Source: Dictyostelium firmibasis
Taxonomy: Eukaryota > Evosea > Eumycetozoa > Dictyosteliales > Dictyosteliaceae
Length of the DNA: 64,000 nt
Assembly (NCBI GenBank): GCA_036169595.1
Contig: CM069769.1
Coordinates: forward strand, 1,056,001 to 1,120,000
Direction of reading: 5' to 3'
Part shown: positions 174-28,871 of the stretch, in pieces
Layout: each line of letters begins with the position of its first letter
Position numbering within the stretch: the first letter of the stretch is position 1
Position numbers and translations under genes: made by a program
Notes under the pieces: model-generated
The model's input: only the letters and a program-made list of their open reading frames with translations
Databases searched by the model: none
Told to the model about the DNA's origin: nothing

Positions 174-3100
174 TCATTTAATTAGTTTGATTGTCATAGG
201 AGAATTATTACTAAAAACTAATCGGATGTAGCTATAAAAAGTTTTTTTTTTAAATTAATTTTTTTTTTTTTTTTTTTTGTTAATTTTTTTTTAAATTAAT
301 ACTTTTTTTTTTTTTTTAGTTAATTTTTTTTTTACTTACTTTAAAGAGCCTAAACCAGAAGTATTAAATGAAAATGAATCTACTCCATTTAAACTTGTTG
401 AGCCAAAGATTGTGTTTGTTAATTCGAGTTCATCAAAAGTGACTCTAATTGTTGAGTTTGATATACCATGGGGGAAGAAATTAAAACCAATTACTTTAAT
501 TGTGACACTTGATGGGTATTCTATTTGAGTTACCGTTGAAATTGGATATTGGAAATAGAATGATTTATCGAAATAAACAAAGAAATTATACATAATATTT
601 TTACTATATTCATTGTAAAAAGATATTAAAGATTTTGAATAGGATTTGATTTCTGGTGGTACTGAACAACTGATTGTTTGAATGTAGTTATCTTGATTTG
701 TGTTAATATTGCCAATGATTGGACATTCATAACCTGATAATAATATTTTTGTTGAGCTATCAAATAATCTACCTGTAATTGTAAGAGAATATTGATATGG
801 TGATGGAAGTGTACTGATTGGATTGATTACTTGATTTATAATTGGAATGATTGAACATGATTGTAATACTTTTCCACTTTGATAATCTTGAATTGTTGAT
901 TCTGTAAAACTACAAACTTTTGAGCCAAATGTAATAATTGAAAGACCATACCCAAGGTTAGTCGATGATTGGAAGAAATATGTTTGATATGGTGAATTTG
1001 GATAACTGATCATTGATGGATTTGAAAGTTTTATTAATTGTAAAATATCTGAATTTATTTCGAAAAGGTAGTTTAATGAATTCTTTACAATTGTGGTGTC
1101 ATAAATACATGGATTCTTTGGATTGACATATTTTCCAAGTGTTTTAACCGTTGTGAATGATTCTGATGATTTAAAATAATTAAAGAATTTACCACTTGTC
1201 CAATCGCTGTTTATTGAATTATCGATCCATTTTGAACCTATTGTTTCTTCGATATATTTGAGGCTATATTGTTCGATTTGTTCTAAACATACACCAGTTA
1301 ACAAAAGTGTACTCTTTAAATCTTTTTTATTTTCTCTAATTACTTTTTCTAACTCCTAATAAAGATAATAATTATTAGTTTTTTGTAAATTTTTTTTTGT
1401 TTTTCTTTTTTTGTTTTAAAACTTACTAAATTTGATAAATCACTGCATGTAAAATTACAACTTAAATAAGAGAAATAATCGTTTACATCGGTTGCTTGAC
1501 CACCTACAGTTACTTCGATATTCAAGTTGTTACCAACTCCTGTTGGTATATTACAAATAACTGATTTTGAATCGACCCATGTTATTGAATTACAAGGAAT
1601 ACCTCCGATTTTAACGTTGCTTGATGAATCTGAAGAAATGCCAATTGGAATAAAGTTTGAACCAGTTATTGTAATATTGTTTCCTCCAAGGTATTTATAT
1701 TCCTTTTTGTCAAGTTTGGGTTTATCATAAAAAGGTCTCAAAGAAGGATATGAGGATTGACTTCCTACTATCACAACTGGAATAAAACGCCCAATACCTT
1801 TTGGGACCATAGCTTTTACATGTGTTGAATTGATCCATGTCCATGATGGTGACAAATAAGAATTAATGATAATATAATGTATTGAACGCGAAGTTTGATT
1901 ATTGACTTGAGCTGCGAGAGAAGTTGGAATAAAGTTTATACCTTTAATTATAGTTTCTCCACCATCAGTTGGAACAGGTATTAATGAAGATTCTGCTCTT
2001 GGATAATCGTAATTTATAAAATAATTATCTATTACACCATTTGAGTTATTGGTTGTTGAAATTTGTTTACCAACAGTTACTGAAACGATAGCTGATTGAC
2101 CGAAACCTGGTGGTGCTAAACATGAAATCAATGTTGAACTCTTCCAATTGACATTGGTAAGATTTGTACCTTTAAGTGTAACAAAATTATCATTGTTCCA
2201 AATAATTTCAGATGTGTTTAAACCAAGATTAATGATTTCTTGTGTTGGTGGAAAGTTTTTACCATTTAATTGGAAATTACCTCCATCAGTTGGAATAAAA
2301 ATAGTAGGAGGTGTGTATAATAAAACTGGTGCTTTATAAGAGTAGGTGAATGTAAATGTTTGTGATGGAAACTTAATAGTACCGCTTCCGACACCTAATG
2401 ATGATTTGATACAAACAAAAACGTCATATTTTGAATAATCAAAAAATGCTGAATTCTCTAAAAAAACTGTTGATTCGACACATGGATGACCTGTTGCTGA
2501 TCCTGAAATTGATGGAATTTTTGATGTGCTTGGACAGTTCTTTTCAAGTTCGCAATAGATTGGTTCTTTTTCATAATTATCGATGAATGGAGAAATCATA
2601 GTTTTTGATCCATGATATTGACCAATAACAAAGAATCTATTGATAATACCTGTACTGAATGTTTGAGTAACTACTGTGACGATGGTTGGTGATGGATATG
2701 AAAATGAAAGTGTGCCTGAAGTGGCCAAACTTAACACATGTTGAGTATAAACTAACGCATTGCCGAAACCATTTGGAACGATAACTTTTACAAATGTTGC
2801 TGATTTTGATACTATTGTCGCTTTAACTTTGGTGTTGTCGCCTGTAATATTAAAGTAAACTTCATAGTTGACTCCGTCTAAATTAATACCATTAATCGTA
2901 ATAGTGTCTCCAGCTTTTGCGCTGGTTGGTGTTAAACTACTTAATGTAATAGGTAGTGAGTAATATGGACATGAAATTAAGTGAGTTGGAATATCTAATG
3001 TTTGGAAATTTGATATTATTGAATAATGGCATAGTAAACCGTTGTATTTAATAATTGCAAGACCTCCTGATGATGTTGAAGTAAGTTTGTGGAAAGATAA

Positions 3101-26100: not shown

Positions 26101-28871
26101 TCATTGGTGATAGTTAAAAAGTCATTGATTGAGTTCTTTTCTTTATTTAAACCATTGTTGCCATATGTACAAAGATTATCATGTGTGATTGCATTGATAT
26201 ATGGTGATATAGATGTTTGTGGTTTACCTGTTAATAACATTTTGTAAATTTGACCGCCCATCCAATCATCGTATGCTTTATCGTTTGAAACCCAAGTATC
26301 TTTAAATATTTGAAGTAATCTTTGTGCACCTGTACCATAGTTGTTGATTTCAGTGAAGCAAACACCTAAATTTAAAAGAACGCTAACTATGTTGGTAGAG
26401 ACCAAACCGCCTGGTGCTGTACAACTGTATGAACATGGATTTCCAAAGGCTGGTAATACTGGTGCATAATTAATTGGGCATGCATACTTGGTTTTAATTT
26501 GAATTATGTATTGGCATGCCCAATTGTTGGCAACTTCAGAAGCACTAACCACAGTGTATGTAGCTGTTGGATCACATGTCATTTCTAAAATGTTTGTTCT
26601 TTGGTATCTTGAACCTTGGCATACTCTTGTTGTGCTATAGGGTGTAGTATGATGTATTTGTATACCATTGTTTATTGGATTCATTGTTGTATTTTTTAAA
26701 CTACCGGCATGAATTACAAGACCATCAATATATTGGCAAGCTTGATAATCAACACCAGGAATTGCACTTGTTTGGTTCGTACAATAATTAACAGTATTAC
26801 CGATACTGTAATAAAGCTTTTAAAAAATAAGAAGAAGAAAAAAAGGTTAGTTTGTTTTTTTTTTTTTCATTAAAATTTAATTATTTAAATTATTTTTTAC
26901 TCTATATGTGGTTCCACTAACTGGAATATCGGCTATTTTTGGATTATCCTTGGTTCTGTTAAGTTTAATGGTTTTGGTTATTATTAATATAAATTGTTGT
27001 TGTTATTATTATAAAATTGAAAAACTTACGTTTTTATAGGTGTAATATCATAATATTTATGGCTCATTCCATTGTAATAGATTGTTGATTCACAAACATA
27101 TTTTGTTTTGATTGTTACTGTGTAAGTGCATATTGGTGATTCTATAGTTGAAACTATTTGGTAATGTTGACTTTCATCGCAAGTTAAAAGAATAATAAAA
27201 TTTCTATAAGAATTACCTGTGCAAATTGTTGCAGATGGTGAATATTCAATTTTGACTTGATTATAATCGAATGTTACTTTTTGACCTAAACTTGATTGAG
27301 CGAGTGGAGTGTAACTATTACTTCTTGGGTCATATTGACAAGCAAAATGAAAACTTTGATCATTCAACCCATCACTACAAAGTTGTGCTCTATTACCAAT
27401 ATTAAAAACGATATCATATTGATATCCACTAGTGGTATGAGATCCTGTGTAGTTTCTTGTTGAATCCCTGAAAATTTATATTTTATGTAAAATTAATAAT
27501 TGTTATTGTTATTGAAGGGTGTGAGTTTAATATTAAAAAACCAATACATACAACATTAATGGTGAAAGATCATAGTATTGTGATTCTTTGAATAAACGTA
27601 ATGTTGGACATGCATATTTTGTATACACTTTAACTTGATAAATACATTGTGATTCAATGATAAATTTATCGACATAGTACTCGGTGGATGGATCACAAAC
27701 TAAAATATACTTTGATGAATATTTGTTACCATTTGTGGGGCATTCTGAAAAACCTGTTGTTGAACTATAAATTATTACTATTGTATTATTTATGAATGTA
27801 ATGGTTCTAGGTTGACTGATAGATCCTAACATTACTGATTTTGGTGTTGTTGCATATCTTGAATCAAGATTATAATCGATTGCTTTGTTGGCAACTGTTA
27901 AAATACATGATTGATAACTTAATGTTGTTGTACCAAAACTACTACATCTTTTTACATTTCCAAATAAATTGAAAAGAATATCTTTACTTTGATCATTGTT
28001 GGTGATTTGGTATGATGTGCTTTCTAATCTGTTAAATTTAAATAATGTAAGATAATTTGAAAAAAAAAAAAAACAGGTCAAAATAACATATTTTATAGGA
28101 ATTGGCAAAAAAAAAAAAAAAAATAAAATATAAAAAAAAAAAAAAAAATTTGTGTTATATTTTATTTTTTTACAAGTTTGTGAAAAAAAAAAAATAATAA
28201 AATTATAAAAAATAAAAATTAAAAAAAATAAAAAAAAAAAAAAAATTTAAAACTTACAACTTCATTGGTGTAAAATCATATAAGAGACCTTGATTAAATA
28301 ATATTCCTTCATTTTTACAAACATATGATGATTTAATGTAAATAGTGTGTTCACATAATACTCTTTGATTATTAGTGCTTGTAAGAGTAAAAACAGAAGT
28401 TGGATCACAAGTTATCACTAAAATCATAGTTCTACGATTACCATTACCAGGACAAGTTGTTGAAGGTAAAAGAGTTGATTGATATTTAATAGTAATACCA
28501 TTTTCTCTAAATGTGACGAAATGTGGTTCATTGAGTGAACCAACTGAATTTTTAGTTGAAAAAATGGTTCCTGTTGAATAACCATCTGGATTCATATGGT
28601 CATTAAAACATGGATTAAAATAAATATCATAATTTGTCTGTATTCCACCTGTAAGTTCTTTTGTAAATTCTGCAAGATAAGCACCTGAATGATCGGGACG
28701 GGATATTGGTCTTAAATCATAAAAATCATTATTTCCAAAATCATAAAAAACACATGATGATAATGTACCATTTGTTGACCAATTTCTTGTATCAAATGTG
28801 TGACTACCAACTGTAAAATAAATATAATATAAAATGAATAATAAAATCGATATTATTATTTTTAATTTCAT
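23118..28871 (-). CDS. Secreted MRH-IPT/TIG repeat protein, array copy 4
   Basis: Exons 28871-28258, 28028-27552, 27467-27030, 26955-26901, 26816-24357, 24281-23266 and 23175-23118, about 1,705 residues. The signal peptide is preceded by two extra residues (MKLKIIIS). Four MRH-like modules and about seven IPT/TIG repeats follow, as in copy 1. It is the most diverged full copy: exon 3 is two codons shorter, exon 5 begins MNPINNGIQIHH, and several IPT positions differ. The last exon is of the copy 1 type (ending SPMTIRLIK). Intron 4 has a GTAAAA donor instead of GTATGT. Intron 3 lacks the microsatellites of the other copies. Confidence 0.82.
28040..28440. repeat. Inverted duplication, left arm (exon 1 and intron 1 of array copy 4)
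   Basis: This part of exon 1/intron 1 of copy 4 recurs inverted at about 29211-29520, including the intron sequence caggtcaaaataacatattt. The two arms are separated by about 770 bp. Confidence 0.75.

What the first reader, a model, noticed from the sequence alone, without database searches (positions are those of the whole stretch)
174..28871. Tandem family of secreted proteins combining four MRH-like lectin modules with IPT/TIG repeats
Seen: four seven-exon genes with a signal peptide, four Cys-rich modules with the MRH pattern, and about seven IPT repeats, in one array. Known: MRH domains of mannose-6-phosphate receptors, OS-9 and glucosidase II beta bind mannose glycans; IPT/TIG proteins of the Tgr family mediate allorecognition in Dictyostelium. 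Inference: the array may encode secreted or wall/matrix glycan-binding adhesins. The MRH-IPT combination in tandem multigene form is the best candidate here for an undescribed system.
Basis: partly seen in the sequence, partly recalled or inferred. Interest (0 to 1): 0.8.

Follow-up and report, generated by a model that had tools for sequence, protein, structure and literature searches.

The report
Tandem multi-MRH lectin-like secreted proteins
A social amoeba carries a row of nearly identical genes for large, probably secreted proteins whose parts resemble the animal mannose-6-phosphate receptor, and one part keeps the residues that receptor uses to hold sugar, so the proteins may read sugar tags on the amoeba's own secreted enzymes.

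Summary
The array is real. In what assembly statistics identify as Dictyostelium firmibasis, four seven-exon genes lie on the minus strand at 28871-174; a fifth lies just left of the window. Each encodes a hydrophobic N-terminus read as signal peptide, four Cys-rich MRH modules (M1-M4), an undescribed ~180-aa domain (D1), IPT repeats, that domain again (D2) and a C-terminal region, without a clear later membrane segment. [quoted passage not shown] an array-only profile finds only MRH proteins at E<=1. Four of gene A's seven putative IPTs pass Pfam; copy C lost IPT2-5 in frame. New here: of 26 modules scored, only M3 keeps all four sugar-contact residues at receptor spacing, in 5 of 5 array copies and 2 of 2 chromosome-3 paralogues. 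M4 is ambiguous. Best explanation: a soluble lectin with one competent (phospho)mannose pocket; methylphosphomannose, common on dictyostelid glycans, is the candidate ligand. Binding, expression and fold are untested (structure prediction failed, then was switched off). Tgr kinship is not supported. New variant of a known kind.

The parts
174..6028 (-). Gene A, exons 6028-5421, 5224-4748, 4651-4208, 4023-3969, 3886-1427, 1355-340, 231-174; 1705 aa
   Evidence: spliced model, open frame
6401..12125 (-). Gene B, exons 12125-11500, 11361-10885, 10788-10345, 10211-10157, 10062-7603, 7532-6520, 6455-6401; 1709 aa; M1 has two extra Cys
12478..17054 (-). Gene C, exons 17054-16447, 16243-15767, 15670-15227, 15065-15011, 14915-13695, 13621-12606, 12532-12478; 1291 aa; IPT2-5 lost in frame
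23118..28871 (-). Gene D, exons 28871-28258, 28028-27552, 27467-27030, 26955-26901, 26816-24357, 24281-23266, 23175-23118; 1705 aa
5480..5917 (-). Gene A MRH module M1 (residues 38-183); lacks Gln, Glu, Tyr of the sugar site
   Evidence: DNA coordinates by arithmetic
4804..5479 (-). Gene A MRH module M2 (residues 184-343, across intron 1); lacks Gln and Arg
   Evidence: coordinates by arithmetic
4270..4803 (-). Gene A MRH module M3 (residues 344-489, across intron 2); complete Q406 R452 E473 Y479 set
   Evidence: coordinates by arithmetic
3548..4269 (-). Gene A MRH module M4 (residues 490-641, across introns 3 and 4); Gln, Arg, Tyr present, Glu 7 before the Cys instead of 3-4
   Evidence: coordinates by arithmetic
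2957..3505 (-). Gene A domain D1 (residues 656-838), undescribed ~180-aa domain
   Evidence: coordinates by arithmetic
2693..2956 (-). Gene A IPT1 (TIG 28.1 bits, cut-off 20.9)
2003..2338 (-). Gene A IPT3 (TIG 24.2 bits)
1724..2011 (-). Gene A IPT4 (TIG 21.3 bits)
1463..1729 (-). Gene A IPT5 (TIG 54.5 bits)
849..1459 (-). Gene A domain D2 (residues 1338-1517, across intron 5), second copy of the D domain
   Evidence: coordinates by arithmetic
18802..19270 (+). Fused remnant of array exon 2 (18802-18945) and exon 6 (18947-19270; two stops), between genes C and D
29208..29510 (+). Remnant of array exon 1

Best explanation
The array encodes soluble secreted lectins built like a short piece of the CI-mannose-6-phosphate receptor ectodomain. 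Four MRH modules follow the signal peptide. M3 (perhaps also M4) holds a terminal mannose or phosphomannose in a Gln-Arg-Glu-Tyr pocket; M1 and M2 are structural neighbours, as most CI-MPR modules are. The D domains and IPT repeats form a stalk or protein-binding region. Shown: open reading frames and a consistent splice model, MRH homology, the M3 residue set and its retention in diverged paralogues. Inferred: secretion, sugar binding, and (weakest) that the natural ligand is the methylphosphomannosyl or high-mannose N-glycan that dictyostelids put on their own glycoproteins.
For: MRH homology: the mixed 12-row profile reaches CI-MPR 6um1 at 1.1e-20 for the whole chain, a sum over its many modules; the best single modules have i-E 1.3e-4 (6v02, 6p8i). 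The array-only profile hits only MRH proteins at E<=1, best 7.5e-4. The M3 profile aligns with a CI-MPR module of 6z30 so that CQ meets CQ, YKR meets YQR and ESPICTY meets ETSDCSY. Control inside: the 6um1 module at 343-475 shows CQ/FQR/GEVDCTY, the one at 188-324 shows CLV/HSP/AKSNCRF. Full set in 5 of 5 array M3 and 2 of 2 C3 M3, and in none of the other 19 modules scored (5 M1, 5 M2, 5 M4, C3a M1, C3a M2, L044, L045). All four residues are among 39 invariant of 147 M3 positions across five rows that include paralogues 31-32% identical; chance under a simple draw 0.0044. Dictyostelids carry methylphosphate on terminal mannoses, and mannose-6-phosphate is stated to be known only from amoebae and vertebrates (PMC11795075, passages).
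Against: Single modules score weakly: M3-only profile 0.013, M4-only no MRH hit and five chance hits to an unrelated bacterial family at 0.04-0.13, M1 alone none; Pfam stays just under its cut-off. No clear membrane segment, so not a sorting receptor in the animal manner. Differences between copies show constraint, not clear diversifying selection. The glycan papers I saw do not treat D. firmibasis (0 mentions).
Confidence: 0.45

Rival explanations
1. Structural matrix or coat protein: MRH, D and IPT modules act as disulphide-rich building blocks in the sheath, spore coat or macrocyst wall, and no module binds sugar.
For: Hydrophobic N-terminus, no clear anchor, 45-47 Cys and 15-16 N-glycosylation sequons in the four full-length copies; two of four modules lack the sugar residues; M2, D1 and D2 are nearly identical between copies.
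Against: M3 keeps all four contacts in 7 of 7 genes although the array and C3 rows share only 31-32% identity there.
Confidence: 0.3
2. Cell-cell recognition factors in the manner of Tgr: diverged M1, M3, M4 and C-terminal segments carry individual specificity.
For: IPT domains; divergence between copies is concentrated in M1, M3, M4 and the C-terminus (pN 0.036-0.075) and low in M2, D1 and D2 (0.006-0.007).
Against: No clear membrane anchor; no Tgr model over cut-off; synonymous divergence is concentrated in the same segments (pS 0.076-0.113 against 0.019-0.027) with pN/pS 0.48-0.66, so a conversion mosaic explains the pattern.
Confidence: 0.12
3. ER or Golgi glycan-handling factor like OS-9, ERLEC1 or glucosidase II beta.
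For: With the array-only profile ERLEC1 is the best hit (7.5e-4, ahead of CI-MPR at 0.0054), and OS-9 (0.11) and glucosidase II beta (0.29) follow.
Against: The mixed profile prefers CI-MPR; ~1700-aa tandem multigene architecture with IPT repeats; no HDEL-like C-terminus.
Confidence: 0.06
4. Largely decayed or unexpressed duplicates.
For: Remnants of the same genes lie in and beside the array; copy C has lost IPT2-5.
Against: Five of five copies keep open seven-exon models; pooled pN/pS is below 1 in all ten segments.
Confidence: 0.07

Closest known systems
[quoted passage not shown]
   Same: Several MRH modules in a row, only some with the complete sugar-contact set; alignment over the module.
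   Different: Four modules instead of fifteen; no clear transmembrane segment; followed by D domains and IPT repeats.
OS-9, ERLEC1, glucosidase II beta
   Same: MRH family; weak profile matches.
   Different: Small ER proteins with one or two MRH modules and no IPT (recalled).
Tgr family of Dictyostelium
   Same: IPT/TIG domains in dictyostelids.
   Different: Tgr are transmembrane proteins with TIG and E-set domains (passages); the array proteins show no clear anchor and carry MRH modules.
ComC superfamily of Dictyostelium (ComC_SSD, EGF)
   Same: One member in this genome (L044) also has an MRH-like module.
   Different: No ComC_SSD or EGF in the five gene A exons scanned and no ComC_SSD match in the array; no D domain outside the array and C3 pair in the search.
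Chromosome-3 tandem pair (C3:4627-4647 kb, same genome)
   Same: Four MRH modules, D1 and D2 in the same order, IPT repeats; its D2 is 41-43% identical to the array's.
   Different: From open frames only (not spliced): apparently more sequence before M1 and a last large exon frame of 914-919 aa with further IPTs.

Membership tests
MRH (mannose-6-phosphate receptor homology) domain | Sequence-profile homology over the module with conserved Cys | tested here: met
   whole chain 1.1e-20; 18 of 18 sequences listed at E<=5 are MRH proteins; 7 of 7 at E<=1; 6-8 Cys per array module. Pfam stays below cut-off (M3 PRKCSH_1 22.7 against 23 bits; 2 of 12 A1 members match PRKCSH_1 at E<=1).
MRH (mannose-6-phosphate receptor homology) domain | Flattened beta-barrel fold | not testable with these tools
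P-type lectin (mannose-6-phosphate receptor) | Gln-Arg-Glu-Tyr sugar-contact set in at least one module | tested here: met
   M3 in 5 of 5 array copies and 2 of 2 C3 copies.
P-type lectin (mannose-6-phosphate receptor) | Type I membrane anchor and cytoplasmic sorting tail | tested here: not met
   No 19-residue window after residue 40 averages above 1.65 Kyte-Doolittle (the 1.65 windows lie in D1, not near the C-terminus); C-terminus NYIRLVFSNNSPMTIKLIK.
P-type lectin (mannose-6-phosphate receptor) | Binding of phosphomannosyl glycans | not testable with these tools
   Needs protein.
IPT/TIG proteins | Pfam TIG over gathering score | tested here: met
   Exon 5 of gene A E=2.8e-25, four stretches; 4 of 7 gene A pieces pass alone.
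Tgr family | Transmembrane anchor with TIG/E-set ectodomain | tested here: not met
   No clear anchor; Ig_TgrO1 14.2 bits against 27.9. Definition from passages of PMC12324515 and PMC12821622.
ComC family | ComC_SSD and EGF domains | tested here: not met
   Five of seven exons of gene A scanned, neither found; none of 146 PF22933 matches lies in the array (150 of 152 candidates scored).

The most novel reading that the evidence does not exclude
These are the endogenous readers of methylphosphomannose in dictyostelids: secreted P-type-like lectins, using one competent MRH pocket, that recognise the amoeba's own tagged lysosomal and secreted enzymes outside the cell, through an undescribed domain (D) that links MRH modules to IPT repeats.
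Probability: 0.15. Interest if true: 0.8.

Novelty: new variant of a known kind. Interest (0 to 1): 0.52.

Why it matters
Mannose-6-phosphate glycans are stated to be known only from amoebae and vertebrates, and dictyostelids often methylate theirs (PMC11795075, passages). The searches listed no paper whose title or start of abstract names an endogenous dictyostelid receptor for them; I looked at passages of only a few of the listed papers. A multi-MRH gene family with a retained sugar site makes that question testable with one expression construct and a glycan array. The D domain is a candidate new domain family.

Tried and rejected
Tgr membership: rejected on the missing anchor and sub-threshold model. 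Diversifying selection: the copies differ most in M1, M3, M4 and the C-terminus, but synonymous differences follow the same segments, so I read it as a gene-conversion mosaic; in 30-codon windows pN/pS exceeds 1 only where pS is zero or low (0.025), apart from one window at 1.01. I first placed the sugar-site Glu and Tyr wrongly from memory and thought Glu was absent from all modules (note); the CI-MPR alignment corrected this. M4 as a complete site: left open, its Glu is 7 rather than 3-4 residues before the Cys, and M4 alone found no MRH protein in PDB. For M1, which has fewer Cys, the Gln position is a rule of thumb. D domain: no Pfam, no PDB sequence match, no relative in viral contigs (57 pattern matches, none confirmed), and in this genome only the array with one remnant and the C3 pair (a single-protein search; next match E=0.039). 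Whether D. discoideum has orthologues could not be tested: no eukaryote sequence database was on hand. Papers on an endogenous receptor or an MRH-IPT family: searches (0 papers; 11; 7; 66, 15 listed; 5; 1; 8; 15) showed none by title or start of abstract; one search used 'ipt tig', which would miss 'IPT/TIG'. Passages, not whole texts, were seen of nine papers; the passages of PMC8669491 and PMC5767268 said nothing on a dictyostelid receptor.
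Full report
What the window is. It lies at C5:1056001-1120000 of a 31.46 Mb, 12-contig assembly. Size, contig number and N50 (4.39 Mb; C4 has 4,391,865 bases) match the published D. firmibasis TNS-C-14 assembly (PMC11193728, passages). The organism name rests on that match.

The observation. Open frames, the raw sequence and pattern-based splice modelling give seven-exon genes on the minus strand. Genes A, B, C and D are in the window; gene E lies directly left of it. 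All five models are open from ATG to stop; there is no transcript evidence. Four copies of a Cys-rich module are followed by D1, IPT repeats, D2 and a C-terminal region. Copy C joins IPT1 almost directly to D2, in frame. The copies are 95.3-97.9% identical in coding DNA over aligned codons.

MRH. Single-module evidence is weak: M3 matches Pfam PRKCSH_1 at 22.7 bits against a cut-off of 23 and ATG27 at E=0.0075; M1 and M2 give no MRH family; M1 alone finds no MRH protein in PDB. Pooled evidence is strong. A profile of 12 modules (six array rows covering M1-M4, four C3a modules, L044 and L045) finds CI-MPR 6um1 at 1.1e-20 for the whole chain, then further CI-MPR entries, ERLEC1, glucosidase II beta, CD-MPR and OS-9; 18 of 18 sequences listed at E<=5 are MRH proteins, and the best single CI-MPR modules have i-E 1.3e-4. 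A profile of 16 rows from the window's own exons finds ERLEC1 at 7.5e-4 and CI-MPR at 0.0054; 7 of 7 hits at E<=1 are MRH proteins. Profile-profile comparison links M1-M4 with each other (E 4.6e-4 to 3.7e-11) and not with D (array M against D: E 0.08 or worse; the lowest M-D value, C3a M1 against D2, is 0.011 at 3.8% probability).

The sugar site. CI-MPR has 15 MRH modules, of which 3, 5, 9 and 15 bind carbohydrate, with four essential residues in the site described (PMC7481795, passages; the legend prints Gln, Arg, Glu and Arg, and the fourth as Tyr is my recall). In the alignments these fall on a Gln after a Cys, an Arg eight before the third-last Cys, and E-x(2,3)-C-x-Y. Which numbered CI-MPR domain each aligned stretch is, I know only by recall. 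M3 has all four in 5 of 5 array genes and 2 of 2 C3 genes. M1 has only Arg; M2 has Glu and Tyr but neither Gln nor Arg; M4 has Gln, Arg and Tyr with a Glu seven before the Cys. C3a M1 and L044 lack only Gln, C3a M2 keeps only Tyr, L045 has Lys for Arg and no Glu. C3a M4 and C3b M1, M2 and M4 were not scored. The four M3 residues are invariant across rows 31-32% identical, with chance about 0.004 under a simple draw, a rough figure because the rows are related.

IPT and D. Four of seven gene A pieces pass the TIG cut-off; three show nothing; the copy-E version of the last is sub-threshold. D1 and D2 are homologous (blastp 5e-10; hhalign E 3.4e-6). They have no Pfam or PDB sequence relative. In this genome single-protein searches find them only in the array, one remnant, and the tandem pair on C3.

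Evolution of the array. Differences between copies sit mainly in M1, M3, M4, IPT1 and the C-terminus; M2, D1 and D2 are almost identical. pS rises with pN, and pN/pS is 0.18-0.66 across the ten segments, so purifying selection plus a conversion mosaic suffices. The four M3 sugar-contact residues do not vary between the five copies.

Mechanism. I think a soluble, secreted multi-MRH lectin is most likely, with one competent pocket (M3) and perhaps a second (M4). The ligand is inferred. Dictyostelid N-glycans carry methylphosphate on terminal mannoses (PMC11795075, passages; PMC6994554, passages; D. firmibasis itself is not mentioned in the former), and the mammalian receptor's N-terminal site recognises D. 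discoideum lysosomal enzymes (title of a reference seen in PMC7481795). An endogenous reader is therefore a reasonable expectation, and this family fits. Plain high-mannose binding, or no binding, is not excluded.

Setting. Genes C and D are separated by about 6 kb that includes a repeat with 592-nt inverted arms, 99% complementary, and a fused two-exon remnant of the array genes between the arms. The arm sequence is repeated across the genome (54 matching pieces).

Verdict. A real, well-formed gene family with an architecture I did not find described and a retained sugar site in one module. It is a new variant of a known kind, not a new system. The decisive step is a glycan-binding experiment.

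Noticed in passing
window 18039-18630 and 21692-22283: Inverted arms (592 nt, 99%) of a repeat with 54 matching pieces genome-wide. I entered 40 of those 54 (14 short or overlapping pieces left out by hand), merged them to 38 sites and dropped the window's own: 13 of 37 lie within 5 kb of a TIG or ComC_SSD match, against a mean of 2.2 for random positions (maximum 10 in 5000 draws). C1, C2 and C6 lengths were approximate (C2 set too short) and gene density was not controlled.
   Followed up: partly
window 18802-19270 (+): A fused remnant of array exon 2 and exon 6, in the opposite orientation and lying between the inverted arms, as if captured or rearranged by the repeat.
   Followed up: partly
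window 19445-19720: Part of a second high-copy repeat (copies mostly 96-98% identical, many near contig ends and on C1 around 4.5-4.85 Mb), possibly centromeric or DIRS-like (the DIRS label is a guess).
   Followed up: no
window 30100-32160 (-): Decayed IPT/TIG gene with stops, 30-44% identical to the array IPT region.
   Followed up: partly
window 11553-12062 (gene B M1): Gene B M1 has two extra Cys plus a 6-residue insertion that the other four copies lack, i.e. a possible extra disulphide in that copy alone.
   Followed up: no
L044 (C5:2779108): An MRH-like module joined to EGF and ComC_SSD domains, so MRH also entered the large ComC family (146 SSD matches in this genome).
   Followed up: no
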